Positions 1,701 through 44,883 of a stretch of 64,000 nt of DNA are shown piece by piece. A model generated the notes under the pieces. That model was not told the origin of the DNA. It searched no databases and saw only the letters and a list, made by a program, of their open reading frames with translations. The stretch's first letter is position 1. The number at the start of each line of letters is the position of its first letter. The DNA lies in the NCBI RefSeq assembly GCF_006974125.1, contig NZ_CP037858.1:1550001-1614000 (forward strand). The letters run 5' to 3'. This stretch comes from Stenotrophomonas maltophilia. GTDB lineage: Bacteria; Pseudomonadota; Gammaproteobacteria; Xanthomonadales; Xanthomonadaceae. The position numbers and the translations under genes are program-made.

Positions 1701-4700
1701 TTACCAGTCATAGGCGACGCGAAGCTGTGCATTGGCTTCCCTGTAGCCCTGGTCGCCCCGCATCAGGCCGAAGCCGCCCCAGGCGTTCAGTCCGGAGCGG
1801 AAGGCAATGCGCGCGCCGGCGCTGACTTCATAGCGATCGCGCGCAACGCCTGCGCCCATCGCTTCGCCATCGAACGCAACCTGCGGTGCGGTGCCCTGGC
1901 GGTACCAGTTGGCCGCCAGGTACGGGTTGACGGTTGCACCCGACTCCATGCGCGACTCGGCCTGCAGGCGCAGCCCCAATCGACCAGACAGCCGGTTGGA
2001 CTGCAGCAGGCGCACTTCGGTACCGGTGTGCTCCACATGCGTGCCCATCTGCGAACGGCTGTGGACCAACTGCAGTTCGGGCTGCAGGCTTACTGCGGTG
2101 GAACCCACGCGGCCCACACCGAAGCGGTAGCCCGCTTCCAGCGAGGACTGCCACAGATGGCTGCGATAGCGCTCACGCGCCAGTGCATCGCCACCGACAC
2201 CGTTGCGGAACCGACCGCGCTGTGTCCACGCATCCACATAGGCCGCCTCGGATGCCCAGTTCGCGTAGATACCCACGGCGGCGCCCTGCACGTCGCCCTG
2301 CGCCTGGTAATCGGTCAACACCGACCGCGCCTGGGTTCTGGCACGTGCAGCAGTCAGCATCACGCCCAAACGGGTGCGCGCTGCATCGAATACACCCACG
2401 TCGGCGCCCAGCTGCAGCACGGAATGCTGCGACCGCAGGGACAACTGGTTGTCCACGCCAGGCAGCCGCACCTGCGCGGCCTGCGTGCGGATCCAGCCCT
2501 GCACACCGTCGCCTGTACGAACGCCTCGGTCCTGTGCGCCGTGCTGCAACAGCCGGTCCATGGCGAAGCGGTTGGCCAGATAGGTACCCGCCTCCGGACG
2601 CAGGATGCGTGGCTGCAACCCAGCGCACCCATCGCCTTCAATCACCTCGCAGGGATCAGGCGTTACACCCGGGCCGTCTTCGCACGACGACCCATCCAGG
2701 CCTTCACTGCAGAGTTCCGGCGGCGGCTTCACCGAGCAGCCTGTACCCTGCGGATCGCTCTCGCAGGGGTCGGGCACGGTGGCCAGCGCCGAACGCAGGT
2801 ACCAGCCACCGTCGGCAGGGTCGGCAATGCCGCCTTTGTGCAGGAAATACTCGTAGCGGCCCGCAACGGCACGCCCGGACAGCGAATAGTGCGCGTCCGA
2901 GCTGCCTTCCACCTGGATCAGCTGGATACCGTTCTGCGTCTGTGCGCCCAGCCCGCCCACGTTGTTGACCTGGACCGCCGCATCGCCGCGGGTGCTGCCC
3001 AGCACGTGCAGGAAGTCGGTCGCGGACGCGTCGCCGCCCAGCGCCGCATTGAACACCAGCAGACTGCCATGCGTATCCAGGTCACCGCCCACGACAAGCC
3101 GGTGGAAGCGACCGGCATACCCCTGGGAGAGCTGCACCGCACTGCGATCAAGCGACAGCGATCCGACCCGCGAATCACCGGTCAGCGTCCATTGGCTCTG
3201 CCCGGACAACCTCGCCTGCCCAAGCACGGTACTGCTTCCCTGCCACCGTGATCGACCGGCAAGATCCAGCCGCAGGTCCACGGCGACCGGAATGCCTGCA
3301 GCAAGGTCTTCCGGGGTGATGACGATGTCACCCACCGCGTCCACATCGCCACTGAATTCGAACGTAAACGGTGCAGCGAATGCGGCGTCGACCTGCGCCA
3401 GCACACCATTGCCGCCGGCCAGTCGTGCGCCGTTGCGCGCGGTGAACTGGCGGGCGCTGCGCACCCACAGCGCACCATGGCGCTCGGCCAGCAACGACCC
3501 ACCGTCAATGTCCAGTACGCCGTTGTCATTGATCACCGCCGCCCAGGCACCACGGCCGGTCGTGGTCACATCGGTGCCAGACAGGGACATGCGGCCGGCA
3601 CCGCCGGTCAGCACGCCATAGCTTTTTTCGCCGGACGTGACGATGGAGCCACCAGACAACGCCACCTGGCCACCCAGCCGCGCCACCGCACCGATGCCGC
3701 CTGCGCCACGGGTCTGGATGGCGACCCCATCGGCCTGGATGGACGGCTGGCCACGGCCTGTATCCATCGATGCGTACAGGCCGTGCGAGGACTGCCCAAG
3801 CGTAGTCAATCGCACATCGAACAGGCGGGCGTTGCCTGCACGGTTGTCCAGTGCCACCGCGCGGTCAGCGGACGTGCCGATACTGCCACCGTACATCGCG
3901 AAGTTGGCCGCACCGCCCAGGTGAACCGCCGCAGCAATGCCACCATGGGTGTAGATGTCCACGCCATCCAATCTCGCGTCATCGCCGTCCGTGGCAGAAA
4001 CTGCATGGAAACCGGTCTCGATACGCAGGTTCTCGAGTTCGGCAACGCTGTCGCCCCGCAGCGCGATGCCGCTACTGCGTTCCGAAGATGCGATCAGTTC
4101 CCCCCCGCGCCAGTGCAGCGTGCCGCCATCGACTTCGGCCATCGGCACGACACCGATCGGATCACCAACTGCGTCGATATGGGTATCAACCAGCACCGCG
4201 GTGCCACCGCGTTCCACCAGCAGGCCTTTCGCAGAGGGTCCGGCAATGAGCGAGCTGCCCTGCAGACGCAGGCTGCCGCCACCGGCCACGGCCGCTGCGG
4301 CACTGCCCCAACCGTTGGCGCGCAGCACCGATCGGGTCACCTCAGCAGTGGCGCGCTGCCCGATACGCAGGGCCTCGGAACCGGCGCCGGCCACGGTGAG
4401 CTCACTGTCGTCCACCTGCACCCGTGCACCGCCGGCAGCGATCACCGCCATGGCCGAATTGCCCGTGGTGCTGAGGTGCGCACCCTGCATCAGCAGCGAT
4501 CCGCCATCGACCCGGGCAGCGGCACTGCCAAGGCCGAGAGTGGACACCCGCACACCGGTTCCATCGGCGGCGCGCAGCAGCTCCACCCGCCCGCCCGACG
4601 CCACCGAAATGGCGTCGGACACGCGCCCGTGCTGCGTGCTGACTGCTCCGCCGTGCAGCCGGATCAGGCCATCGGATTCAGCGCGCAGGGCTGCGGCGCC

Positions 4701-4958
4701 CTGCCCGCGGGTAATGACCGACACTGGCGCGGCCGCGTCGATGCGACCGCCGTTGAGTGCGAACAGCGCATGACCCGCCGCCCCTGCCTCACTCGTCTCG
4801 TAGCTGCCTGCAGCGTCGTGCGCGCTGCCATCGGCAATCAACTGCGGCAGCGGCGTGCTGGCAAAGGCGGGAGCAGGCAGCACACAGGCGAAGATCGCCA
4901 TGGCCAGCAGATTGCGGGGAAGAGGCCGTGAAGCTGAATGGCGGGCAGGGACATGCAT
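1701..4958 (-). CDS. classical (type Va) autotransporter, pertactin/AIDA-like passenger with beta-barrel
   Basis: The 1085-residue protein starts at the ATG at 4958, because a typical signal peptide follows directly (residues 1 to about 28, ending APAFA). The frame is open further upstream but lacks such a signal. The passenger is a long run of Gly/Ser/Val-rich short-strand repeats (GG-x-L, SG-x-S) typical of a right-handed beta-helix. A Cys-rich linker at about 2600-2790 carries six cysteines in Pro/Asp/Gly-rich sequence. The PEAGTYLANR motif then introduces a roughly 290-residue C-terminal barrel ending in Tyr-Asp-Trp, the usual outer-membrane terminus. Expected role: surface adhesin or biofilm factor. 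No protease active site was noticed. No good Shine-Dalgarno is visible. It is last in a minus-strand adhesin series. Confidence 0.87.
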   Translation of the reverse strand: MHVPARHSASRPLPRNLLAMAIFACVLPAPAFASTPLPQLIADGSAHDAAGSYETSEAGAAGHALFALNGGRIDAAAPVSVITRGQGAAALRAESDGLIRLHGGAVSTQHGRVSDAISVASGGRVELLRAADGTGVRVSTLGLGSAAARVDGGSLLMQGAHLSTTGNSAMAVIAAGGARVQVDDSELTVAGAGSEALRIGQRATAEVTRSVLRANGWGSAAAAVAGGGSLRLQGSSLIAGPSAKGLLVERGGTAVLVDTHIDAVGDPIGVVPMAEVDGGTLHWRGGELIASSERSSGIALRGDSVAELENLRIETGFHAVSATDGDDARLDGVDIYTHGGIAAAVHLGGAANFAMYGGSIGTSADRAVALDNRAGNARLFDVRLTTLGQSSHGLYASMDTGRGQPSIQADGVAIQTRGAGGIGAVARLGGQVALSGGSIVTSGEKSYGVLTGGAGRMSLSGTDVTTTGRGAWAAVINDNGVLDIDGGSLLAERHGALWVRSARQFTARNGARLAGGNGVLAQVDAAFAAPFTFEFSGDVDAVGDIVITPEDLAAGIPVAVDLRLDLAGRSRWQGSSTVLGQARLSGQSQWTLTGDSRVGSLSLDRSAVQLSQGYAGRFHRLVVGGDLDTHGSLLVFNAALGGDASATDFLHVLGSTRGDAAVQVNNVGGLGAQTQNGIQLIQVEGSSDAHYSLSGRAVAGRYEYFLHKGGIADPADGGWYLRSALATVPDPCESDPQGTGCSVKPPPELCSEGLDGSSCEDGPGVTPDPCEVIEGDGCAGLQPRILRPEAGTYLANRFAMDRLLQHGAQDRGVRTGDGVQGWIRTQAAQVRLPGVDNQLSLRSQHSVLQLGADVGVFDAARTRLGVMLTAARARTQARSVLTDYQAQGDVQGAAVGIYANWASEAAYVDAWTQRGRFRNGVGGDALARERYRSHLWQSSLEAGYRFGVGRVGSTAVSLQPELQLVHSRSQMGTHVEHTGTEVRLLQSNRLSGRLGLRLQAESRMESGATVNPYLAANWYRQGTAPQVAFDGEAMGAGVARDRYEVSAGARIAFRSGLNAWGGFGLMRGDQGYREANAQLRVAYDW

Positions 4959-5098
4959 GGCGGGGAGCCCGGTTGAAAAAAGGAGGGTGCGCAGTGTCCG
5001 TACAGGGCGGGGCCAATGCCATGCAACAAGTTGCAGATTCGCCCTTCCCTCATCACTTCCAGGGGGACCCGCCGCCCACCCTCCCGATGGCCAATGCC

Positions 5099-5848
5099 CT
5101 ACAGCGGCATTCCGCTGCCGGTTGTGGGCCCGGAGCCCAACAGCCACTCCGGCAACCAGGGGGCGGGCGCACGCCTGGGATACTCCGCCATCATCCGCGC
5201 GTGCATGGTCCGAAGATCGTTCAACAACCATGCCTGGTGGTAGATGTCGCTGAACGAATCCGACCAGCCGCTCTTCACCCGCTGGCGTTCGACGCCTTCG
5301 AGACTGGGTACCCGATCAGGTGGGCCATCCAGGATGGGCTGCAGCGCCCGGTTGACGCCCCTGTTTTCCGCTGCGGCCTCGCGCAGCAGGCTGATGTGCG
5401 CCTGCACCCGCGCGCATTGATACGGCACACAGCCATTGGTCGCCTCGATGTAATCGGCGATGTCCGCCAGCAGCGTGGCCTTCAACCGCCATGCAACCTC
5501 GCCATCCAGTACCTGCCGCACCCGCATCGTGCGCAGTGTACTGGCGCGGATGTCCTCCCCGGAGGTGAAGTCCTGGCCCGGCGGGCTGCCGGCGCGGCGC
5601 ACCATCGCGATGCGGAGGATCGCCTCATTGGTGATGCCTTCCACCCGCAAGGCTGCCGCCTGCGGATGCAGCCGCGGGGGTGGCACCGTACTGAACTTCC
5701 AGTAGTACCAGAGCACGAACACCACAACCGCAAAGCACAGCACGTTGGACAACAGCAAGACATCCACGCGCCGGGTGTAGTAGTAATACCGCGCACGCCA
5801 CAGATAGAACGTGCGGTAGCTGATGAATCGACTTGCCCATCGGTACAT
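5099..5848 (-). CDS. single-pass membrane protein of unknown function between two adhesin genes
   Basis: About 249 residues. The ATG at 5848 is preferred because GAGGAG sits six bases before it; an ATG two codons upstream (5854) would touch that Shine-Dalgarno. A Tyr/Arg-rich N-terminus (about residues 1-28, with a run YYYY) is followed by one transmembrane segment at about 29-50. A soluble, probably periplasmic, domain of about 195 residues follows; it contains one CVPYQC pair and no recognised motif. It is co-oriented between the trimeric adhesin and the type Va autotransporter, with 69 bases to the former, so a helper role in adhesin export or regulation is possible. That is inference from position only. 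Confidence 0.7.
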   Translation of the reverse strand: MYRWASRFISYRTFYLWRARYYYYTRRVDVLLLSNVLCFAVVVFVLWYYWKFSTVPPPRLHPQAAALRVEGITNEAILRIAMVRRAGSPPGQDFTSGEDIRASTLRTMRVRQVLDGEVAWRLKATLLADIADYIEATNGCVPYQCARVQAHISLLREAAAENRGVNRALQPILDGPPDRVPSLEGVERQRVKSGWSDSFSDIYHQAWLLNDLRTMHARMMAEYPRRAPAPWLPEWLLGSGPTTGSGMPL

Positions 5849-5917: not shown

Positions 5918-7366
5918 TTACCAGCCGATACCCACACCGACGCCGACGGTGCGTTCGCCACTGTTGGTGAACGCGCCGTTGAGGCTGAAGGTGGCCGAGC
6001 CCTTGTCATTGAGCACACGCTGGTAGCCGACCGCCATGGCCGATTCACCCTCGCTGTAGCCCACGCCCGCGCCCAGGCGGTTGTAGGTGTTCAGGCCCGC
6101 GGTGTTCATCGCCATTGCGCTCTGCGCGCTGCCCATCGCCGCCATCCGGTTGAAGCGCTTGTCCATCTTGTCCAGGCGGCGTTCGACGCTGCTGATGGCG
6201 CCATCGGTGTACTCGTTGGCACGCGCCAGCATCTTCTCCAGCTCGGCGGTATCAACCTGCGCCTTCGGTGCCGGCTCGTCCTTCTTCTTCGGGGAACCCG
6301 CCGGCTGGCCGCCACCCTCGTTGGAGGCAACCTTCGGTGCACCACCGGCTTCGGCCACCGGCGATTCCTCGGTGGCAGGCGGCAGGGTCACCGGCACTTC
6401 GGTCGATGCCAGGCGCTGCGAACGCCCCTGCGGCTGCCCATCCAGACGGCTTTCCAGCCCATCCACGCGGCCGTTGAGCTGCTGCTGCATGGCATGCAGC
6501 TGGCCACCATTGACCGCATCACGGCTGCCCGCCGCGATCAGGCCGTTGGCCACGTTGGAAATGACCATGCCCTGTGCACCGGCCAGCGTCAGCTGACCGA
6601 TGCCGTCGGTGCGGCTGGTGGGCGTGTCCTGGAACACCGAGCGCAACTGGCCTTCCACGCGATCCATGCGCGAACCGGTGGACGTGACGGCGCCGTCGAG
6701 CATACTCAGAGCATCGCCTACATTCGTATGAGCGCCGCCTTGGACCTTAAAGGAGGGGGAGACAACATTCCCTTGCTTGTCCAGCGTAGCGCCACCACCA
6801 AACAATGCCAGAGAATCGCGCAACTGACCTGCTGTAGCCGCGTCATAAGAAGCTACGCCACTTGCAACGTTCGTCAACCTGCGCAAATTGGTACGGCTAC
6901 CAATCGAAAACTCATTGGAGCGCAGCGCTTCAGAACCTGCACCAATAGCTACGGAGTTCTCCGCACCAGCGAAGACCCAAGCTCGATCCCCTATTGCCAT
7001 GCTTCGGGAACCGTCCGCCCTTGCCCTTGAGCCGATTGCTACCCCGCCTTCATTTCCGCCTGCCACCGATGAAGACTGACCGAGAGCCACTGAATTTTCT
7101 GCATAAGCCTGAGCAAAGTGTCCAACGGCCGTGCCACCTGCACCATTCACGCTCGCTGAGGCGTACTCGCCAACTGCTACCGCGCGATCACCGATCTTCG
7201 CATGAGAATTGCTTTCATACTTGGAGCTAACGGCGACTCCCCCTGAAGACTTTTCAAGATCGGATACGCGCTCATTGGTTGCAAAGAGCTGTGAACCAGT
7301 TACAGCATCCGAGCTTGTACTGGAAACCTGCCCTTGCGCAACATCAGTCAATCGAGCCCCCCCCAA
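5918..7366 (-). CDS. trimeric autotransporter adhesin, C-terminal stalk and YadA-type anchor (out of frame with its N-terminal part)
   Basis: This frame encodes about 480 residues. It begins at a non-credible TTG inside a G8 run and continues directly into GGARLTDVAQG, which matches an internal motif of the upstream half. Low-GC head repeats (7200 to about 6900) come next, then a neck/stalk and a Pro/Lys-rich segment near 6250-6300. A coiled coil near 6150-6240 leads into the roughly 90-residue YadA_anchor beta-barrel ending GVGIGW. It has no signal peptide or ribosome-binding site, so it is almost certainly the 3' part of the gene starting at 11165, separated by one base in the G tract. Alone it would not be made or exported. 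Confidence 0.85.
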   Translation of the reverse strand: MGGARLTDVAQGQVSSTSSDAVTGSQLFATNERVSDLEKSSGGVAVSSKYESNSHAKIGDRAVAVGEYASASVNGAGGTAVGHFAQAYAENSVALGQSSSVAGGNEGGVAIGSRARADGSRSMAIGDRAWVFAGAENSVAIGAGSEALRSNEFSIGSRTNLRRLTNVASGVASYDAATAGQLRDSLALFGGGATLDKQGNVVSPSFKVQGGAHTNVGDALSMLDGAVTSTGSRMDRVEGQLRSVFQDTPTSRTDGIGQLTLAGAQGMVISNVANGLIAAGSRDAVNGGQLHAMQQQLNGRVDGLESRLDGQPQGRSQRLASTEVPVTLPPATEESPVAEAGGAPKVASNEGGGQPAGSPKKKDEPAPKAQVDTAELEKMLARANEYTDGAISSVERRLDKMDKRFNRMAAMGSAQSAMAMNTAGLNTYNRLGAGVGYSEGESAMAVGYQRVLNDKGSATFSLNGAFTNSGERTVGVGVGIGW

Positions 7367-10300
7367 AACTGATATCAGTCAGAGCCGAGCTCTCAGACAC
7401 CAGAGCGGCCAGTACTGATGCGTTTGCCTTGCCCTGGAGTTCCTCAAGGCCGTTTCGGTTACGTGCGATATCCTGCTTCGCCGCATACAGCTGGCTGCCG
7501 GTAACTGCATCCCGGCTGCCCGGAGCCAATCGACCATCAGCCAGGTTGGTCAGGACCATACCGTGTGCGCCAGCAAGGGTCAGCTGACCAACGCCACCCG
7601 TACGTGCAGATGCCGTGTCGTCGAACATCGAACGAAGCTGGTTCTCGATCACGCCCACTCGGGTACCGGTCTTGGTGGTGGTGCCATCCAGTACATTCAG
7701 CGCATCCGCAACCGTGCGCTGGGTGCCGCCCTGCATGGTGTAGGTCGGAGCGATCACGTTGCCGTTCGCGTCCATGCCTGCACCACCGCCAAGGGTAGCC
7801 AGGGATTCGTTGAGCTGTGCAATGGTGGTTGCATCATGAACTCCAGTTCCTCGGCCAACATTGACCAAGCGACGCTTCATTGATCCGTCACCAAAGGAAA
7901 CCGTATTCGACTCAGCTGCAACTGAGTATGCGCCTATAGCCACTGCATTGAGCGCGCCAACTTCAATACTTGAAGATGCACCAATCGCAACACCAAATTC
8001 CTCCTCAACGAATGATCCTGCACCAAGTGCAAAACCACTATCCGCCAATGTGCTCACGTACGCTGCCCGCCCCAGTGCAACAGAGTTTCTACCCAGGGCG
8101 TTTGTGAAACTTCCGACGGCAGTCCCGCCCTCCCCGCTCGGCGTCGCATTTGCAGAGTTGCCGAAGGCGACACTGAAGTCGCCTGCACGTGCTGACTGCG
8201 TGGCCTGCTCAGTACCCACTGCAACCATTCTCACCGTATCTTCAATCTTCTCCACGCGACTATTCGTCGAGAAAATCTGCCCACCATTGACAGCATCCGT
8301 ACTAGCCGAAGAACTGATATCCCCATCAGCAATCCCCGTCACCCGCGCACCGCCCATCTCCACCAGACTGCGGTCGTCGCTGAACTTCACCACGCCGTCC
8401 AGATCCGGATTGAAGGCTTCAAACTCTTCGCGAAGGCGGTCCAGGCCATCACGGTTGTCATCAATGCGACCCGCATGTGCAGTGAGCTGCGTGGCATGTG
8501 ACGAGAGCGCCAGACCCTGCGCCTTCGCTGTCTCGTTGGTGGCAAACAGCTGCTGACCGCTCACGGCATCGGAGCTGGTGGCGCTGAGGACGCCATCGGT
8601 GACATTGCTGATACGGCGCTTCGCACCGGCCTTGTTGGCAACATCCAGCACGGTGCCGCTGTTCTCGGCACCCAGTCGTACGTTTCCGGTGGCAGACACC
8701 TGCCCCACCAGCCCACCCAGGGTGGTGGCCTGTGCCAGTGCGTTGTCAGCAGCAGTCCTGGCAGCACCCGCAGTGGTCTGCGCCGTGTTGGCGGTGTTCT
8801 GTGCGGCGGTAACGTTGCTGTTGGTGGTGTTGAGCTGCCGGCCGGTCACGGCCTCGGTGCTGGTGCCGTTCAGGGCCGCATCGGCAACGCCGCTGATCTT
8901 CCTGTTCGCATTGGCCTTGTTTCGCACGTCCAACACGCTACCGGTATTTTCGGCACCCAGCCGCACGTTACCGGTCGCGGACACCTGCCCCACCAGCCCA
9001 CCCAGGGCATTCGCCTGCGCCAGGGCATAATCCGCGGCGGTCTTCGCGGCACCGGCCGTGGTCTGCGCCGCGTTGGCGGTGTTCTGCGCCGTGGTGACGT
9101 TGTTGTTGGTGGTAGTGAGCTGGCGGCCCGTCACAGCCTCGGTACTCGTTGTACTCAGCACTGCATCGGCAACGCCACTGATCTTGCGGTTGGCATTGGC
9201 CTTGTTGCGCACGTCCAGCACGGTGCCGGTGTTTTCGGCACCCAGCCGCACATTGCCGGTAGCCGATACCTGCCCCACCAGGCCGCCCAGCGTGGTTGCC
9301 TGCGCCAGAGCGTTATCAGCAGTGGTCTTCGCGTTACCGGCGGTGGTCTGTGCCGCGTTGGCGGTGTTCTGTGCGGTGGTGACGTTGCTGTTGGTGGTGT
9401 TGAGCTGGCGGCCGGTCACAGCCTCGGAACTGCTATCGCCCAACGTAGCGTCCGCCACATTGACGATCTTGCGCTTGAGCGTAGCGTTGCCGACCGAAAT
9501 CTGGTTGTTTCCCGCAGTCTGGGCGCCATTGCCCAACGCCACCGAACCCGCGTGGGAAGCTACGGCACGGTCACCCAGTGCTGTCGCGCCGGCCGCGGAC
9601 GCATTGGCCAGATTGCCGAGCGATGCCGCCTGGGCGCCGGCGGCGATGCTGCCACGCCCTACCGCGACCGCCTGCGCACCCGTGGCATTGCTCTGGAAGC
9701 CAAGAGACGCTGCGTACTGCCCCTGGGCAGATGCCTGGTGACCGACTGCCACGCTTCGATCTGCAGCGGCATTGGCCTGCAGCCCCACGGCGACCGCACC
9801 ATTGCCGCTACGCGTACGGGCGCCGATGGAAACACCGCCATTGGCGCCAGCCACCTTGGCGCCCTCCTGGTCGACACCGGCCAGAGCGTCGAAGCCAAGG
9901 GCGACACCCTGGCCGTTGTATGCCTTGGCGTTGTGGCCCACTGCGGTACTGATGCCATAGCTGTTGGTTTCAGCCGAGGCGCCCTCCCCCAGCGAAAGCG
10001 CCCGCGCGCGGACGGTCGCATTGACCGCATCCGCGGTGGACTTGGCCGCGGTCGCTGCCGTCTGCGCGGCAGTAGCAGTCGCGCTGGCAGCGTTCGCCGT
10101 CTGCTGGGTCGCATGCAGCTGCTGGCCGGTCACTGCATCGGTACTGGTGGCGCTGACCACGCCATTGGCGATGTTCTGCACCACGCGCTTGGTGCCGTTC
10201 TTGTTGGCCACGTTGATGACCGTTCCGGTGTTGTCACTACCCAGGCGGATGGCACTGCTGGCCGAGGTCTGTGTCACCAGACGGGTGTTGGCCAGCGCCT

Positions 10301-11165
10301 GGTCGGCGGTGGTCCTGGCGGCGTTGGCGGTGGTACGCACCACGCCCAGATCGGCGTTGGTCTTGTGCAGCTGCTTGCCGGTGACCGCATCGGTACTGGT
10401 ATCGGACAAGCGCGCATCGGCGACGTTGACGATGCGGCGTTGGGTGGATGCGCTGCCAACGGAGACGCTGTTTCCTTCGTTGGCGACTGAGCCACGGCCC
10501 AGCGCCACGGCGCCGCTTGCGCTGGCAGTCGCATGGTGACCCAACGCGACACCGTCGTGCGTTGCGTCGGCACTCGCCCCCAGTGCGATCGCACCACTCC
10601 ATCCTGCCGTACCGGCACGCGCGTTGCCGCCGATGGCGATGCCACCCAGACCTGCGCCCGTGGCAACGTTCGCACCGCTACCGACGACGACGGCATTCCG
10701 CCCCGATCCTGATGCATCGTTGCCGATCACGATGGCCCCGATACCGTCTGCCATCGCCCAGGACCCCAAAGCGGTACTGTAGCCCTGGTAGGCCCTTGCG
10801 TAGTAACCCAGTGCCGTCGCGCGGTCACCCAGAACCTTGCTGCGATGGCCGAATCCAGTTGAGAAGCGACCGTCGATTTCAGTTCCATTACCTGTGATCA
10901 TCGAGTTGCGGGTATTGCTTCCAACCAGAGTGTAGATGCGACTGTCGTCGTGCCCATAGGAGGGCGTACAGGTGTAGTAATCCGCTATCAGGGGTGAGCA
11001 GCTCTCATTGAAGACGGCCGCACCGACCGGCGACGACGCACAGAGAACGGCCGCCATCAGGCAGAGTTGCGCTCCATTGCGCTTGCCTTTGGTGGCACTC
11101 AGCTCACTCGCAACTACCCAGCACTGACGGGCAGTCGACCACAATCTACGATAGATCTTGTTCAT
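7344..11165 (-). CDS. giant trimeric autotransporter adhesin (type Vc, YadA/Hia-like), N-terminal 1273 residues, frameshifted
   Basis: The start ATG at 11165 has AAGGAG five bases upstream. The protein opens with an extended signal peptide region (MNKIYR..W...R..WVV.SE) and a hydrophobic core ending near GAA. Many YadA head repeats follow (A-A-A-L-G-x-x-A pattern), then neck motifs (DAVTGQQL) and long coiled-coil stalks. Among these are three 95-residue tandem repeats and a second head block at about 7900-8200. The frame stops at 7344-7346 just after a run of eight G. Removing one G would fuse it to the downstream frame and give one 1748-residue adhesin with an outer-membrane anchor. As read here the product is secretable but lacks the anchor. 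Confidence 0.92.
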   Translation of the reverse strand: MNKIYRRLWSTARQCWVVASELSATKGKRNGAQLCLMAAVLCASSPVGAAVFNESCSPLIADYYTCTPSYGHDDSRIYTLVGSNTRNSMITGNGTEIDGRFSTGFGHRSKVLGDRATALGYYARAYQGYSTALGSWAMADGIGAIVIGNDASGSGRNAVVVGSGANVATGAGLGGIAIGGNARAGTAGWSGAIALGASADATHDGVALGHHATASASGAVALGRGSVANEGNSVSVGSASTQRRIVNVADARLSDTSTDAVTGKQLHKTNADLGVVRTTANAARTTADQALANTRLVTQTSASSAIRLGSDNTGTVINVANKNGTKRVVQNIANGVVSATSTDAVTGQQLHATQQTANAASATATAAQTAATAAKSTADAVNATVRARALSLGEGASAETNSYGISTAVGHNAKAYNGQGVALGFDALAGVDQEGAKVAGANGGVSIGARTRSGNGAVAVGLQANAAADRSVAVGHQASAQGQYAASLGFQSNATGAQAVAVGRGSIAAGAQAASLGNLANASAAGATALGDRAVASHAGSVALGNGAQTAGNNQISVGNATLKRKIVNVADATLGDSSSEAVTGRQLNTTNSNVTTAQNTANAAQTTAGNAKTTADNALAQATTLGGLVGQVSATGNVRLGAENTGTVLDVRNKANANRKISGVADAVLSTTSTEAVTGRQLTTTNNNVTTAQNTANAAQTTAGAAKTAADYALAQANALGGLVGQVSATGNVRLGAENTGSVLDVRNKANANRKISGVADAALNGTSTEAVTGRQLNTTNSNVTAAQNTANTAQTTAGAARTAADNALAQATTLGGLVGQVSATGNVRLGAENSGTVLDVANKAGAKRRISNVTDGVLSATSSDAVSGQQLFATNETAKAQGLALSSHATQLTAHAGRIDDNRDGLDRLREEFEAFNPDLDGVVKFSDDRSLVEMGGARVTGIADGDISSSASTDAVNGGQIFSTNSRVEKIEDTVRMVAVGTEQATQSARAGDFSVAFGNSANATPSGEGGTAVGSFTNALGRNSVALGRAAYVSTLADSGFALGAGSFVEEEFGVAIGASSSIEVGALNAVAIGAYSVAAESNTVSFGDGSMKRRLVNVGRGTGVHDATTIAQLNESLATLGGGAGMDANGNVIAPTYTMQGGTQRTVADALNVLDGTTTKTGTRVGVIENQLRSMFDDTASARTGGVGQLTLAGAHGMVLTNLADGRLAPGSRDAVTGSQLYAAKQDIARNRNGLEELQGKANASVLAALVSESSALTDISFGGGSID
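7357..7364 (-). repeat. homopolymeric G8 tract (C8 on plus strand), candidate phase-variation switch
   Basis: Eight consecutive G on the coding strand lie in the codons for Ser-Phe-Gly-Gly of the trimeric adhesin. With eight G the frame ends seven codons later at TGA. With seven (or ten) it would read Phe-Gly-Gly-Ala-Arg-Leu-Thr and continue to the YadA anchor. The equivalent sequence in the first copy of the duplicated module (about 8345-8360) has no G run. Confidence 0.85.
8571..9425 (-). repeat. three tandem 285-bp repeats in the adhesin stalk (95 residues each)
   Basis: Units run 9425-9141, 9140-8856 and 8855-8571. Each encodes EAVTGRQL at its start, a coiled-coil stretch (NTANAAQTTAG...ADNALAQ), then GGLVGQVSATGNVRLGAEN and a KISGVAD-type neck. 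The period is exactly 285 bp, measured from the shared GGTGGT..TGAGCTG block at 8821, 9106 and 9391. It is a multiple of three, so copy number can change without losing frame. Confidence 0.9.
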
Positions 11166-11944: not shown

Positions 11945-13078
11945 TCAGGGACGCGTAGTGGGCAGGCGCAGCTCGACCTTCAACTGGCCCTCGTAGCCAC
12001 CGGCGCGCTGTTCGGTGATCGGCACGCGTGGTGTGGTCAGCAGCAAGGGGGTGGGGACGCAGAACACCGGCTGGGTCATGCCTGGCAGCAGCACCAGCCG
12101 CAGCTTTGCGGTGTCGATGCCGCGCAGTTGTTCTTCCACGCCGTTGGCCATGCGGCGACGCACGCCGGCATGTTCCAGTTCGATCATGTAGTCCAGCCGC
12201 TGGTCATCACTGCTGCCGCCATCGTCATGCCACAGCGAGTACCCCAGTGGCCCGGGGGAGCGCCCGCTGGTGTCGGTGACAGTCAGGCCCAGGTACTCAC
12301 TCTGTGAGCCGAGGCCGTCGTAGAGGCACATCTCCAACGGCTTGCGCCCGCCCACGGTCTGGGCGAGTGGGTCGTAGCTGAGATTCAGATCGACGTTGGG
12401 CGTGGTCTGCGGGAACTCCGGGAAGTAGATGGAGACCGCGTCGTAGTCGGTGATAGTGAAGTCGATTTTGAACGTATAGCTGGCGAGCGCAAGGCCATCA
12501 ATTTCGCCCACCAGATTTAGCACCAGCTCACCCACCCATCGACCTGCAACAAGCCGGGCGACCTCTGAAGCCGGGATCACCAGCTCGGCACCGATTCCAG
12601 CAGGTGAGTCGGGACCGCAACGATCCAAGCGTGCTGACCAGATCGGCCTATTCACGGCATACCAGTAGTCCGCACCGCAGGCCTGACCTGTCATGGGCCG
12701 CTGCAATCTTCCACGCGCCGCCAGATCCGTGACCATCCCTGAACGCTTCTCGTTGAATCGAACTACGACATCCCCATACCCAGACATCGCAGCATCGTTT
12801 CCGCGCATGGGACAGCGTCCTTTACTGGAGTCAGCGTCGGAATCACACACCAAGTGCGCGGTCGCGTACGCTCCTTCCGCTGATGTGGACTCGTAAGCCA
12901 ACACCGTCCGCGGCGCCCACAACTCGATATCTCCCGGCATCGCCGAACGGTCCCAGCTCATCACGATGTCCTGCCGTGCGCTCGACGGATGCGTCTCCGG
13001 CGGCCGTTGCGCCCACGCGCCCGGCACCAGCAGCACGCCGGCCAGCACCACCCACACCCACACAACACCCCGCCTCAT
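11945..13078 (-). CDS. pilus tip/initiator protein (CblD/CfaE family)
   Basis: 377 residues. The ATG at 13078 is preceded by AGGAGG and overlaps the usher stop in ATGA, so the two are translationally coupled. It has a signal peptide (about 1-23, ending AWA). The rest is a two-domain beta-rich minor pilin with a donor-strand-like C-terminal half (ADYW...; MCLYDG; VFCVPTPL). In CS1-type systems the large minor subunit sits at the tip, starts assembly and binds the receptor. DNA at about 12480-12900 is visibly lower in GC than its surroundings, suggesting a diverged adhesin domain. Confidence 0.85.
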   Translation of the reverse strand: MRRGVVWVWVVLAGVLLVPGAWAQRPPETHPSSARQDIVMSWDRSAMPGDIELWAPRTVLAYESTSAEGAYATAHLVCDSDADSSKGRCPMRGNDAAMSGYGDVVVRFNEKRSGMVTDLAARGRLQRPMTGQACGADYWYAVNRPIWSARLDRCGPDSPAGIGAELVIPASEVARLVAGRWVGELVLNLVGEIDGLALASYTFKIDFTITDYDAVSIYFPEFPQTTPNVDLNLSYDPLAQTVGGRKPLEMCLYDGLGSQSEYLGLTVTDTSGRSPGPLGYSLWHDDGGSSDDQRLDYMIELEHAGVRRRMANGVEEQLRGIDTAKLRLVLLPGMTQPVFCVPTPLLLTTPRVPITEQRAGGYEGQLKVELRLPTTRP

Positions 13079-15798
13079 GGCGTTCCTCCTGCAGCAGCGG
13101 TCTGGGGCGTCGCGGCAATCAGCGCCTGTTCCTGCAGCAGGCGGGTCACCCGTGCCTGCTGGCGGATCTCTGCTGGCAGCTGGGCCACGGCAAGCGGCTC
13201 GCACTGCACGGTGCCGACCAGCAGCACCACGCTGCGCCGCTCGCGCACCTGCAGCGGGCAGTGCAGCAGGCGGTCGTCCTGCAGCAGGTAGAGCGTGCGT
13301 TCGCGACGCGGAAAATCGGCGACGAAGCCGCCGTTGCTACCGGTGCCCGGCACCGGTGCGTTGAGGATGCGGGCGCCGCCCAGCGGCAGCCCGGCAATGT
13401 CCTGTGCGTTGCCGATGAAGGTGTAGGTCACCTCGATCGGAATCGGCATGCGCAGCAGCTTGCCCGGCGGCAGGAACAGCGGGCGCGAACCGCCCACGCC
13501 GGTCACCCGGATCGCAGCAATGCTGTCCATGGTGCTGGCGTCCTGCACTTCGGCGCGGTGCGACTGGTAGGCCGACAGCGGCAGCAGGCGGCGCTCGCCC
13601 AGGGCCAGCTTCTGCCGGCGCAGGCCGCCAACCTGCAGTTCGGCGGCCACCCCACTCAGGTCCAGATCGTCGGTGTCATCCACCTGCACGGCCAGCCCGG
13701 ATTCAGCCCCCAGGCCGCCGCCCCAGTAGAGGCCTCGGGCGCCCAGCGCCAGGCCCGAACTGTGCGTGGCGCTGTAGGCCATTTCGTTGCGGCCACGCTG
13801 CTGGTACCCCACCACGGTGGCACCGGTGTGGCCGATGGCGTTCTGCAGCTGCGCCGCGAGGCTGGCGCTGTAGCGGTCGCTGTTGTTGCCGCGCAGTTCG
13901 GCAGAGATTTCGCGGTACTGGTTGTCGTATTCCTGGCGCAGGCTCTGGCTGACGCCGTAGTTGATATCCGGCCGTGCGTGTTCAGGCTGGCGGAGGTCGG
14001 CGCTGTAGCGCCGCTGCGACGAACCGCGCTCGCTGCGCTGCAGGCGGGTCAGGCTCAGGTTGAGATACACACCGCGGTCGCGCCCGCTGCGCAGGCTGCC
14101 ATCGGTATCCTGCTGCCACAGGCCCACGCGCGCGGCCACGCTGAATTCGTTCCAGCGCTGGGTGCGGCCGTAGCTGGCCTGCCAGGTGCGGCTGAGCTGC
14201 GGCTGCCGGGTCGGCGCCGGCAGCAGCGGTGGCAGCAGCGGATCCAGCCCGGCCAGTGGATCATCCACGGCGCCAGGCAGGTCCAGCCCCGGCCGCCAGG
14301 TCTGCCGGCGGGTATAGCCAACGTAGGCGCTGCCACCGGCCAGCGGCAGCGCTACCGACGCGCTGAGCGAATCGGCGCAGCCCAGCCGGTCACGCGCGTC
14401 GTCTTCGAAGTTGCAGGCGTTGCCGCGCAGGCGCTGGTGGTAGACGTTCCAGGACGCGCCACGCCGGTACGACAGCTGGTGCTGCTGCCCGTTGCTGCCA
14501 TCGCTGCCCTGCATGCCACTGAAGCTGGCGCGGACCTCCTGCGTGGCGAACACGCGGCGCAGGTCCACGCGCAGTTCGCCATAGCTGTAGCCACCGATGT
14601 CGGCCACGCCGGCGGTGGCCGCAACGTTGCGGCCCAGAGGAATGCGCAGGCCGGCCATCGCCGCCAGTTCATCGTTGTGGCGTGCTGACCGGCGCTCCTG
14701 CCGGCGCCCGCCCTGCAGGAACCACTGCACGCTGCTGTCGGTCCAGTCGCCGCCCTTGTCGAACGGTGCTTCCTCGCTGCGCACCAGCACGCCGTCTTCA
14801 TGGATACGCAGGCTGACGGTGTAGCTGCCGAACGGGAAGCGGCGGGTATCGAGCTGGTTGATGCCGGCCTGCAGGTAGTAGGTCTGCAGCAGACGGTTGC
14901 CGTCGAAGGCATCCACGCGCGCATCGCGTGCCAGCAGCACGGTGAGCGGGGTGGCCTGCACGGCGGCATCGGCATCCACATAGGCCTGGGTGGTGCCCAG
15001 GCGCAGGCCCTGGAAGCGGTCCAGCGGCAGCATGCCAAAGCTGAAGGTGCCGCCCAGCGGGCTGGAAAGATTGCGGCGGTCCATGCGGCCCAGCTGCAGG
15101 TAGTGCTGCGGGCCCAGGTCGTGCCGGTAATAGGCGTTGTCGAGCTGGAAGTCATCGCGCATGCGCTGGTTGCGATAGCGCTGCTGGCTGTAGTTCCACT
15201 CTGCCGCCAGGTGGCCACGCTCGAACATGCCCAGCATGCCCATGCCCTGCGCCGACAGCGCCTGCATGCCGCGACCACCGCTGAGGTTGATGGACTGCTG
15301 GTGCAGGAAGGCGTTTTCGGCATTGGCGCTGACGCTGTGGAAGCGGGATGCGGCCGGCTCACCGTTGATCCACTGGCGCGCGACGAACAGCCGCACCGTG
15401 CCCTCGCCTTCGTCATACAGGGCCCGCACGGCGGCAGGATCCTGCGGCGGCTCCAGATAGCCGCAGCCCGCGCTGCCCGCGCCGAAACGGCAGGCCAGAT
15501 GGCTGTTGCGGGGGAGTGGCTGCGAGGCTGCTGCCAGCAGCGCCTGCTGCGCTTCTGCGGACAGCTGCAGAGCGGCCAGCACCGCGGTGGGGTCTTCCAG
15601 CTGCACGTGTTCCAAAGTGACGCGCACCGGCATGAGCCCGGTCGAACGACCGAACAGGCTGATGTCGAGTTGTTCGGTCTGACCTTCGACCAGATCCTCG
15701 AAACCGGGTGGCACGCCACGCGCCATCACCCACGGTGTGGGCAATGACAAGGCGAGCGCGATCGCCAGCCGGGTGACGGCGGGTGCAGGTGTTTTCAT
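13075..15798 (-). CDS. outer-membrane usher of a CS1/cable-type pilus (CblC/CooC-like)
   Basis: 907 residues, ATG at 15798, signal peptide ending VMA at about residue 26. The N-terminal domain (LFGRSTGLMPVRVTL) and the long beta-barrel region (QLDNAYYRHDLG; PLGGTFSFGML; the FPFGSYTVSLRI plug-like segment) match ushers of the alternative, CS1-type chaperone-usher family. It translocates and polymerises pilin across the outer membrane. C-terminal plug/E-set-like domains end with a Cys-containing segment (LHCPLQVRERR). It lies downstream of the pilin, from which it is separated by a strong hairpin. Confidence 0.9.
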   Translation of the reverse strand: MKTPAPAVTRLAIALALSLPTPWVMARGVPPGFEDLVEGQTEQLDISLFGRSTGLMPVRVTLEHVQLEDPTAVLAALQLSAEAQQALLAAASQPLPRNSHLACRFGAGSAGCGYLEPPQDPAAVRALYDEGEGTVRLFVARQWINGEPAASRFHSVSANAENAFLHQQSINLSGGRGMQALSAQGMGMLGMFERGHLAAEWNYSQQRYRNQRMRDDFQLDNAYYRHDLGPQHYLQLGRMDRRNLSSPLGGTFSFGMLPLDRFQGLRLGTTQAYVDADAAVQATPLTVLLARDARVDAFDGNRLLQTYYLQAGINQLDTRRFPFGSYTVSLRIHEDGVLVRSEEAPFDKGGDWTDSSVQWFLQGGRRQERRSARHNDELAAMAGLRIPLGRNVAATAGVADIGGYSYGELRVDLRRVFATQEVRASFSGMQGSDGSNGQQHQLSYRRGASWNVYHQRLRGNACNFEDDARDRLGCADSLSASVALPLAGGSAYVGYTRRQTWRPGLDLPGAVDDPLAGLDPLLPPLLPAPTRQPQLSRTWQASYGRTQRWNEFSVAARVGLWQQDTDGSLRSGRDRGVYLNLSLTRLQRSERGSSQRRYSADLRQPEHARPDINYGVSQSLRQEYDNQYREISAELRGNNSDRYSASLAAQLQNAIGHTGATVVGYQQRGRNEMAYSATHSSGLALGARGLYWGGGLGAESGLAVQVDDTDDLDLSGVAAELQVGGLRRQKLALGERRLLPLSAYQSHRAEVQDASTMDSIAAIRVTGVGGSRPLFLPPGKLLRMPIPIEVTYTFIGNAQDIAGLPLGGARILNAPVPGTGSNGGFVADFPRRERTLYLLQDDRLLHCPLQVRERRSVVLLVGTVQCEPLAVAQLPAEIRQQARVTRLLQEQALIAATPQTAAAGGTP

Positions 15799-38393: not shown

Positions 38394-38401
38394 AACGATG
38401 A

Positions 38402-42606: not shown

Positions 42607-44883
42607 ATGTCAGCTGTCTTTTCCCCAACCCCTGCCGACAAGGCCCGCCTGGCTGCGGCCGACCTGCCGCCGCGGGTACGCGAACTGCTGGGCGCGTTGA
42701 TCGGCCTCTGCCGGCAGACCCTGGCCGCGCCTCTGATCCTGACCGTTGAAGCGCTGGAACAAGCGCTGCTGCACGACGCGGATCGCGCGCGCAATCCCAT
42801 GCAGCAGGCGGACCTGATGGCCCAGCGCGGCCAGCTGCATGCCTTCGCCGGCCATTTCCCCGATCGCATGCTCGATGCAGTCGCCGAATCCCTGTCACGC
42901 CTGCGTGACCCTGCGGCGGCGCCGCCGGCGCTTTCCACGCCACCACCGCTGCCCGGCATGCTGGGCCTGTCCCTGGTCGCCGAACACGATGTCGACCGCG
43001 ATCTGCTGCTGACCGAGATGGTGCGGCGCGAAACCCTGCGTTCAACCAACTCGCTGAACCTGCTGGGCCAGCGGTTGGGCGTACTCGCCGCTGCGCCGGC
43101 ATTCGAGACCGACGCCCTGCCCCTTGCACCGCAGTCCTTGTGTGCAATGGTGCGCAGGCTGGCCGAACAGGACAGTCTCAGCACCGAAGTGCAGCTGGCG
43201 CTGTACCGCAGCTTCGAACGCCAGGTACTGGAGCGCCTGGGCGATGTACTCGACCGCGCCAATGCCCTGCTGTCCCAGCAGGGCGTCCTGCCCGGGCTGG
43301 TCTACACCCCTTACCTGGCACGCTCGGCGAGCACGCGGCGCATCATCACCCAGTCGGTGGGGGGGGGCCGCGCGACGCAGCCCGCCAAACGTACTGCAGC
43401 GCCGCTGACCGGCTGGAACGGGGCGGCCCCCTCCGGCTCGTGGTCGAACCTGCTGCAGGATGCTATCAGCGACAGTGGTACCGTCGGCTCGGCCATCCCC
43501 GGGATGACCACCTCCGCCGGCAGCGCCCTGCATGAACTGCTGCAGCAGGCCCGGCAGGCCGGCGCAGCGCCCGCGCAGAGCGTTGCCGTGCCCAGCGCCG
43601 CCGTGGATGCCGTACTCGCGCGACTGCAGGCCCAGTCCAGCGCCGCCACCGGCGTTGCCGATCTGCAGGCGGCCGTTGTCGCCCAGCTCCGCAGCGAGCA
43701 TGGCGTACAGGCGCAGCTCGGCAGCCATGACCGTGACAACCTCGACCTGCTGCGCCTGCTGATGCAGCAGGTGCAGCAGCAGCAACGCCCAGACCCGGTG
43801 CCGGCGGCCCTGCTGGCACGCCTGCAGGTGCCACTGGCGCGCGCCGCCATGGCCGACCCCGGCTTCTTCGTGCGTGACGAGCACCCCGCCCGCGAACTGC
43901 TCAACCAGGTCGCCGAAGCCGGCGCCAGCTGGCTGGGCGATGATGATGTCGATCCGCAGCTGCTGCAGCGCATGGCGCAGAGTGTGCAGGGCCTGCTGGG
44001 CCAGGACGTCCGTACCCCGGAAGCCTTCGCCACCGCCAGCGAGGACGTGCAGCAGCACCAGCGTGCGGCGGTTCACCGCGCCGAGCTGGCTGAGCGCCGC
44101 CACGTCGAAGCCGCGCGCGGCAAGGAACGCCTGGAACTCGCCCGGCGCCAGGCCAATGCGCAGATTGACCAGTGCTGCGATGCGCAGGCACCGCCGCGCT
44201 TCGTGCAGACGCTGCTGCGCCAGGCATGGGCCGATGCCCTCACCCTGACCCGCCTGCGCCACGGCGATGATTCACCGCAATGGCAGGAACGCCTGCAACA
44301 GACCCAGCGCATTGCAGCGGTGACCGCGCAGGCCGTGGACGCCCCCGGTGGCACCGATGCCGCACTCGCCAGCGACGTGGAAGCCGCGCTGGTACAGGTG
44401 GGCTACCACGCCGAGGAAGCCGCCGCGGTCGCGCGCAGGCTGGCGACACCCGGCGGCGAGGATGACAGCACCTCGCGCACCGAACTCAGTGCGCGCCTGA
44501 AGGCGCGCGCACGGCTGGGAGAGCAGGCCGGGCCTACCACCACAGCACCGTCCAGCCCACGCAACGCCGCCGAGGAAGCCGCCTACCAGCTGCTGTCCGC
44601 GCTGCCGTTCGGCAGCTGGTTCGACATCGACAATGGCGATGGCACGCTGCGCCGCCAGCGCCTGTCCTGGTACAGCCTGCTGACCGGCCATGCCCTGTTC
44701 GTCAATCCGCGCGGACAGAAGATCGCCGATACCGACCTGGATACGCTGGCCCGGCAGCTCAGCGCGGGCCGCGCGCAGCTGGTCACCGAAGACAAGGGGC
44801 GACTGGTTGATCGTGCCTGGCAGGCCAGCCTCGACGCACTGCGCGCACTGGCCGACGGCCACGCCGGGGAGACATCCGCATGA
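42607..44883 (+). CDS. DUF1631 family protein
   Basis: 758 residues, alanine/glutamine-rich, largely helical, no signal peptide. The DUF1631 pattern runs over most of its length: N-terminal AAADLPPRVRELLG and TEVQLALYRSFERQVLERLGDVLDRANALL; C-terminal AYQLLSALPFGSWFDI and RLSWYSLLTGHALFVNPRGQK. The C-terminal part resembles PilZ-like beta structure found in some c-di-GMP-linked proteins, and a PilZ gene follows with a 4-base overlap, so a role in c-di-GMP signalling is likely but inferred. A run of nine G at 43359-43367 in codons 251-254 makes the gene prone to slippage. Confidence 0.85.
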   Translation: MSAVFSPTPADKARLAAADLPPRVRELLGALIGLCRQTLAAPLILTVEALEQALLHDADRARNPMQQADLMAQRGQLHAFAGHFPDRMLDAVAESLSRLRDPAAAPPALSTPPPLPGMLGLSLVAEHDVDRDLLLTEMVRRETLRSTNSLNLLGQRLGVLAAAPAFETDALPLAPQSLCAMVRRLAEQDSLSTEVQLALYRSFERQVLERLGDVLDRANALLSQQGVLPGLVYTPYLARSASTRRIITQSVGGGRATQPAKRTAAPLTGWNGAAPSGSWSNLLQDAISDSGTVGSAIPGMTTSAGSALHELLQQARQAGAAPAQSVAVPSAAVDAVLARLQAQSSAATGVADLQAAVVAQLRSEHGVQAQLGSHDRDNLDLLRLLMQQVQQQQRPDPVPAALLARLQVPLARAAMADPGFFVRDEHPARELLNQVAEAGASWLGDDDVDPQLLQRMAQSVQGLLGQDVRTPEAFATASEDVQQHQRAAVHRAELAERRHVEAARGKERLELARRQANAQIDQCCDAQAPPRFVQTLLRQAWADALTLTRLRHGDDSPQWQERLQQTQRIAAVTAQAVDAPGGTDAALASDVEAALVQVGYHAEEAAAVARRLATPGGEDDSTSRTELSARLKARARLGEQAGPTTTAPSSPRNAAEEAAYQLLSALPFGSWFDIDNGDGTLRRQRLSWYSLLTGHALFVNPRGQKIADTDLDTLARQLSAGRAQLVTEDKGRLVDRAWQASLDALRALADGHAGETSA
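43359..43367 (+). repeat. homopolymeric G9 tract inside the DUF1631 gene
   Basis: Nine consecutive G within codons for Ser-Val-Gly-Gly-Gly-Arg. The gene is in frame with nine; plus or minus one would truncate the protein after roughly a third of its length. Confidence 0.85.

What the first reader, a model, noticed from the sequence alone, without database searches (positions are those of the whole stretch)
7344..7366. Slippable G8 tract splits a giant trimeric adhesin: candidate phase-variation switch in the OFF state
With eight G the adhesin frame stops after 1273 residues without a membrane anchor. The next frame continues precisely with GGARLTDVAQG and ends in a full YadA anchor but has no start or export signal. 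Deleting one G gives one 1748-residue protein whose junction matches the homologous GGAR(V/L)T motif in the other copy of the module. Poly-G slippage is an established on/off mechanism for surface adhesins (for example in Neisseria and Campylobacter), so a switch is plausible here. A sequencing or assembly miscall of the run is the main alternative.
Basis: partly seen in the sequence, partly recalled or inferred. Interest (0 to 1): 0.85.

Follow-up and report, generated by a model that had tools for sequence, protein, structure and literature searches.

The report
Split adhesin gene, probably no switch
A surface-adhesin gene is cut in two at a run of eight Gs, but relatives lack the run and four unrelated genes of this genome record are cut at the same kind of run, so a sequencing slip or a chance mutation is more likely than an on/off switch.

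Summary
On the minus strand a 1273-residue frame (export signal, YadA heads and stalks) ends just after a G8 tract (7357-7364), and the next frame (5918-7378) carries the rest with a YadA anchor.

The switch reading is weak. Four orthologues beside the same pilus genes are single open frames without a long G tract at the site. In 25 of 29 relative loci examined both sides of the site lie in one frame, with at most 5 G nearby.

The record has 37 runs of G8+. At four other G8 runs unrelated genes are also split while relatives are in frame: a YhdP homologue, a GAF-GGDEF-EAL protein, a GDSL autotransporter esterase and a CshA-type surface protein. Elsewhere the record looks clean: no private one-base indel in 46.7-50.5 kb aligned to each of four relatives.

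So this is a property of G tracts in one genome record, not a conserved adhesin switch. I favour a homopolymer miscall (about 0.45), then a real unprogrammed slippage mutation (about 0.35), then an evolved switch (about 0.13). Reads were not available.

Noticed: mutL carries an in-frame G12 tract absent from 29 of 29 relatives examined.

The parts
7344..11165 (-). N-terminal piece of the trimeric autotransporter adhesin, 1273 aa, no membrane anchor
   Evidence: ORF; Pfam ESPR, YadA_head, YadA_stalk; 69% identical to the G035 orthologue over residues 1-1254
11067..11165 (-). extended signal peptide (ESPR), residues 1-33
   Evidence: Pfam PF13018, E 1.5e-11
7357..7364 (-). G8 tract (C8 on the + strand) at which the frame changes
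   Evidence: sequence; homology of the pieces on either side
5918..7378 (-). C-terminal piece in the next frame, 486 codons, no export signal found by Pfam
   Evidence: translation; Pfam YadA_stalk, YadA_head, YadA_anchor; 66-69% identical to the C-termini of four orthologues
5921..6079 (-). YadA membrane anchor
   Evidence: Pfam PF03895
11232..11930 (-). neighbour: TcfA-like fimbrial chaperone
   Evidence: NCBIfam NF011836, 117 bits, below its cut-off of 500; present in 9 of 9 relative stretches tested
11945..13204 (-). neighbour: CblD-like pilus initiator
   Evidence: Pfam PF07434; present in 9 of 9 relative stretches tested
13075..15798 (-). neighbour: TcfC-type usher
   Evidence: Pfam Usher_TcfC, TcfC, CooC_C; present in 9 of 9 relative stretches tested

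Best explanation
A YadA-type trimeric autotransporter adhesin gene, in one frame in relatives, is split in this one genome record by an unprogrammed change of length in a G tract that relatives lack. It is one of at least five genes of the record split at a G8 tract. The cause is homopolymer slippage of some kind: most likely in base calling or consensus (about 0.45), next most likely in the chromosome, as an ordinary frameshift mutation (about 0.35). If real, the cell would export a protein without an anchor, so the surface adhesin would be off. Shown: the split, its place, the lack of the tract in relatives, the other split genes. Inferred: the cause and the effect on the protein.
For: Four orthologues are single frames of 1673-2063 aa with at most 4 G in a row at the module motifs inspected, and 25 of 29 relative loci have both sides of the site in one frame. 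Four other genes are split at G8 runs: two cytoplasmic or envelope genes (GAF-GGDEF-EAL cut inside its EAL domain; YhdP cut inside its single domain) and two surface genes; the in-frame length is found in 29/29 (YhdP), 28/29 (GGDEF-EAL), 29/29 (GDSL) and 10/17 (CshA-type; 8/8 of the closest) relatives examined. All frame changes in the G8+ census are of one direction class, 7 of 7 at window 150 and 5 of 5 at window 240, one of them a gene junction. No private one-base indel elsewhere in 46.7-50.5 kb of the window, so the breaks are specific to G tracts. Both adhesin pieces are otherwise open and conserved, so the lesion is recent or not real.
Against: Four G9 runs, three G8 runs and a G12 run inside genes are in frame, which a length-dependent miscall would not favour. 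Two of the four other split genes, like the adhesin, are surface proteins, as contingency loci tend to be. Orthologues in G008 and G072 do hold G7 runs elsewhere in the gene. The G8+ census is small: only 12-14 of 37 runs could be classed by the codon test, and strains of the same species could not be compared.
Confidence: 0.8

Rival explanations
1. An evolved phase-variation switch: the poly-G tract slips reversibly during replication and turns the anchored adhesin on and off; the sequenced clone is off.
For: In-ORF poly-G tract in a trimeric autotransporter, as in Mid/Hag of Moraxella catarrhalis, whose tract has 6, 7, 9, 10 and 8 G in five strains (PMC7302503, passages). The gene is otherwise intact on both sides. 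Another surface protein (CshA-type) and an autotransporter esterase of the record are split at G8 as well, and in G002 a GLUG-motif protein changes frame at a G8.
Against: The tract is not kept in relatives. The same kind of break hits a YhdP homologue and a GGDEF-EAL enzyme. The other two YadA-anchor loci of the genome have no G or C run above 6 in the 14-kb and 16-kb stretches read. G8 is short for a fast switch (general knowledge).
Confidence: 0.13
2. A mutator lineage (a special case of real mutation): weakened mismatch repair lets G tracts slip all over the genome, and the adhesin is one casualty.
For: mutL holds an in-frame G12 tract with one codon more than in 29 of 29 relatives examined. 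Several G8 genes are split at once. Mutators occur in S. maltophilia: 28 of 91 strains in one cystic fibrosis study (PMC5581383, passages) and 17 of 78 in a table of a review (PMC8875331, passages).
Against: MutS and MutL are open frames (908 and 657 aa) and MutL scores over the NCBIfam cut-off. The extra residue lies in a loop and is probably tolerated (inference). No private one-base indel in the window comparison. In one cohort three isolates with a mutL deletion had no raised rate (PMC10308010, passages).
Confidence: 0.08
3. Programmed or leaky recoding: RNA polymerase or the ribosome changes frame on the G tract, so some full-length adhesin is made from the split gene.
For: A G8 run is a place where slippage can occur (general knowledge), and the downstream frame is open and conserved.
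Against: Relatives encode the protein in one frame without such a run, so no recoding is conserved. I did not test for a stimulatory structure.
Confidence: 0.03

Closest known systems
Mid/Hag of Moraxella catarrhalis (trimeric autotransporter with an in-ORF poly-G tract)
   Same: Trimeric autotransporter whose reading frame holds a run of G; tract length decides whether the protein is complete (PMC7302503, passages).
   Different: There the tract is present in five of five strains tabulated, at 6-10 G, and varies within cultures. Here relatives lack it and variation in a culture is unknown.
UspA1 of Moraxella catarrhalis (upstream poly-G tract)
   Same: Adhesin with a G tract (PMC7302503, passages).
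   Different: There the tract lies upstream of the ORF and tunes transcription; here it is far inside the ORF.
Homopolymer frameshift errors in finished genome records
   Same: Otherwise open genes of unrelated function split at long single-base runs.
   Different: Some of the longest in-gene runs of this record are in frame; no reads were seen. The comparison rests on general knowledge; the papers listed were not read.

Membership tests
Trimeric autotransporter adhesin | Export signal, heads, stalks | tested here: met
   ESPR, YadA_head, YadA_stalk in the N-piece
Trimeric autotransporter adhesin | C-terminal YadA anchor in the same frame as the signal | tested here: not met
   Anchor present but in the next frame; in four orthologues it belongs to one frame with the rest
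Repeat-driven phase-variable gene | Slippable repeat at which the frame changes | tested here: met
   G8 at 7357-7364
Repeat-driven phase-variable gene | Repeat kept in orthologues at varied length | tested here: not met
   0 of 4 orthologues has a long tract at the site; at most 5 G near the site in 25 of 29 relative loci, 4 of 29 not placed. Species level only.
Repeat-driven phase-variable gene | Repeat polymorphic between strains of the species | not testable with these tools
   One genome per species is held
Repeat-driven phase-variable gene | Such tracts concentrated in surface genes of the genome | tested here: inconclusive
   Of five split genes checked with relatives, three are surface-type (and this gene); open runs lie in FlgK, a response regulator, an amino acid kinase with PUA domain, a TonB-type receptor, DUF1631, DeoR, MFS and MutL
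Repeat-driven phase-variable gene | Reversible switching in a culture | not testable with these tools
   No reads or cultures
Homopolymer miscall in the record | Same class of site broken in unrelated genes that are in frame in relatives | tested here: met
   L051, L054, L089, L090
Homopolymer miscall in the record | Longer runs affected at least as often | tested here: not met
   Four G9 runs and one G12 run in genes are in frame; one G11 (L075) looks shifted but was not compared with relatives. Small numbers.
Homopolymer miscall in the record | Raw reads disagree with the consensus | not testable with these tools
   No reads held

The most novel reading that the evidence does not exclude
A two-level system: an in-frame G12 tract in mutL could slip to give mutator cells, in which G tracts in two adhesins, an esterase autotransporter and a GGDEF-EAL gene then change frame together, so that surface and biofilm traits would change as a set.
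Probability: 0.04. Interest if true: 0.75.

Novelty: new member of a known kind. Interest (0 to 1): 0.27.

Why it matters
As it stands it is a caution: an apparent adhesin switch in a finished genome should be held against the other runs of the same length in the same genome before it is called a switch. If the tract lengths are real and mixed in the population, it would be a first hint of poly-G contingency loci in this genus: titles and abstract starts listed for Stenotrophomonas maltophilia with 'phase variation' (51 papers, 20 listed) and for Stenotrophomonas with 'homopolymeric tract' and 'frameshift' (1 paper, a review of mutators) showed no such report; the listed papers other than PMC8875331 were not opened.

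Tried and rejected
Adhesin-specific switch: tested by orthologues and by the genome's other G8+ runs, and lowered.

Gene decay with many lesions: rejected, since both pieces are open and homologous up to the site.

Poor assembly throughout: rejected for the part of the window that aligns to four relatives, with no one-base indel private to this genome and one 8-base difference at 38394 whose place in or out of a gene I did not check. The adhesin region itself did not align in that comparison.

Excess of G8 in this genome: not seen, 63 overlapping sites in G000, while the other 90 genomes run from 20 to 1693.

Loss of mutS or mutL: both are open frames.

False positives of the frame test: L085 (two adjacent regulator genes), L117 (run just before a gene start), L299 and L325 (gene junctions in control genomes) are not breaks. 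Of the two confident frame changes among 30 of 87 G7 runs, L117 is such a case; L119 (FecR/LysM protein) may be a real break but was not compared with relatives. L083, L075 and L052 look shifted but were not compared with relatives; L083 and L075 have no Pfam match. The tract of the finding itself (L057) falls in the unclear class of the codon test and is counted as split by homology alone.

Led nowhere: genome-contig search for the organism's name gave one relative, S. maltophilia PC315, records of the window's own genome possibly being left out; paper search for the genome length gave nothing; the listings were not read further.

Full report
What is there. The window is G000:C1:1550001-1614000 of a single-contig genome of 4,554,224 bases. 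On the minus strand, ORF 7344-11165 encodes 1273 residues with an ESPR export signal, YadA heads and YadA stalks. It ends a few codons after a G8 tract at 7357-7364. The next frame is open from 7378 to 5918 and has stalk, head and YadA anchor. The genome has three YadA anchors in all; the other two lie in open frames of 1860 and 2420 residues. Upstream lie a TcfA-like chaperone (below the family's cut-off), a CblD-like initiator and a TcfC-type usher.

Relatives. A 1-kb DNA search matched 51 of 91 genomes of the genus, the own one included. In G008, G013, G035 and G072 the adhesin is a single frame of 2063, 2034, 1767 and 1673 residues. The neighbouring chaperone, CblD and usher genes are found in nine of nine relative stretches tested. 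The N-piece is homologous to these proteins nearly to its end, and the C-piece from its fifth residue. The longest G run at the module motifs inspected in these four is 4; elsewhere in the gene G008 has two G7 runs and G072 one, in frame. I then took the 29 relative loci that one search had returned (of 50 other matching genomes) and placed the end of the N-piece and the start of the C-piece separately: 25 of 29 have both in one frame with at most 5 G around the gap, and 4 of 29 gave no adjacent pair. The linker just before the site differs in many of them, so most are not aligned base by base there. One genome per species is held, so strains of the same species could not be compared.

Other runs in this genome. 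The census has 37 runs of G8 or longer. A codon-usage test of the frame on each side gave, at window 240, 7 open, 5 with a frame change and 25 unclear; at window 150, 7, 7 and 23. The frame changes are all of one direction class. One of them (L085) is a junction of two genes. The same test on G002 (21 runs) gave 1 open, 2 changed, 18 unclear, and on G004 (20 runs) 5-7 open, 0-1 changed, 13-14 unclear. On inspection L299 (G002) and L325 (G004) are gene junctions, while L295 of G002 is a GLUG-motif protein that changes frame at a G8, in the other direction class. Among 30 of the 87 exact G7 runs of G000, 6 were confidently open and 2 changed, one of these a run just before a gene start; the other 22 were not confident.

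The split genes. Four besides the adhesin were checked with relatives. L051: a YhdP homologue, profile positions 4-399 in one frame and 395-887 in the other, in-frame length in 29 of 29 relatives examined. L089: a GAF-GGDEF-EAL protein whose EAL domain is cut between profile positions 77 and 85, 28 of 29 relatives (the exception may be an alignment slip). L054: GDSL lipase in one frame and autotransporter barrel in the next, 29 of 29. L090: a CshA_NR2/GEVED protein, in-frame length in the 8 closest of 17 relatives examined and in 2 others, 6 more divergent ones with other lengths, 1 not placed. One search looked at 29 relatives of the 90, 90 and 88 that had a match; at 17 of 28. No relative examined has a run of 8 or more at these sites; for L051 and L089 a G7 occurs in frame in 2 and 1 of 29.

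Miscall or mutation. For a miscall: one class of site, unrelated genes, relatives in frame, and otherwise clean sequence (no one-base indel private to this genome in 46.7-50.5 kb of the window aligned to each of four relatives). Against: four G9 runs, three G8 runs and a G12 within genes are in frame. For mutation: the split genes look individually dispensable (general knowledge), and mutators are known in S. maltophilia (PMC5581383 passages; PMC8875331 passages), although another cohort found three isolates with a mutL deletion and no raised rate (PMC10308010 passages). The numbers do not separate the two; I lean to a miscall.

Switch. The best parallel is Mid/Hag of Moraxella catarrhalis, with an in-ORF G tract of 6, 7, 9, 10 and 8 in five strains (PMC7302503 passages). 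The feature that defines such loci, a kept tract of varied length, is not met between species and could not be tested within the species.

mutL. The longest G run of the census, G12, lies in mutL, which is open (657 aa) and scores over the NCBIfam cut-off. The 29 relatives examined (of 88 with a match) have 2-3 G in a row there and one codon less. The extra residue falls in a loop before the conserved DNG motif (the loop is inferred from the alignment). It is a harmless variant, a miscall, or a slippable site in a repair gene; nothing here decides.

Verdict.

Noticed in passing
L044; G000:C1:1004142-1004153 (outside the window): mutL holds an in-frame G12 tract, the longest G run of the census; 29 of 29 relatives examined have 2-3 G in a row there and one codon less.
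   Followed up: partly
L051, L054, L089, L090 (G000 near 1165375, 1486894, 3901225, 4029176): Four further genes of the record are split at G8 runs: YhdP homologue, GDSL autotransporter esterase, GAF-GGDEF-EAL protein, CshA-type surface protein.
   Followed up: yes
L295 (G002:C1:722105): In another genome of the genus a GLUG-motif protein also changes frame at a G8 run; relatives were not compared.
   Followed up: partly
L119 (G000:C1:1185677): A LysM/FecR protein seems to change frame at a run of seven; relatives were not compared.
   Followed up: no
window 1701-5231 (-): A classical autotransporter (1176 aa, AC_1 and barrel domains) holding a C7 at 4100 on the + strand is open; among nine relative stretches tested it was found in G035 only.
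   Followed up: partly
window 43359-43367 (+): G9 run in a DUF1631 gene, in frame and of the same length as in four relatives, three of which have other letters inside the run and one a G6 there.
   Followed up: yes
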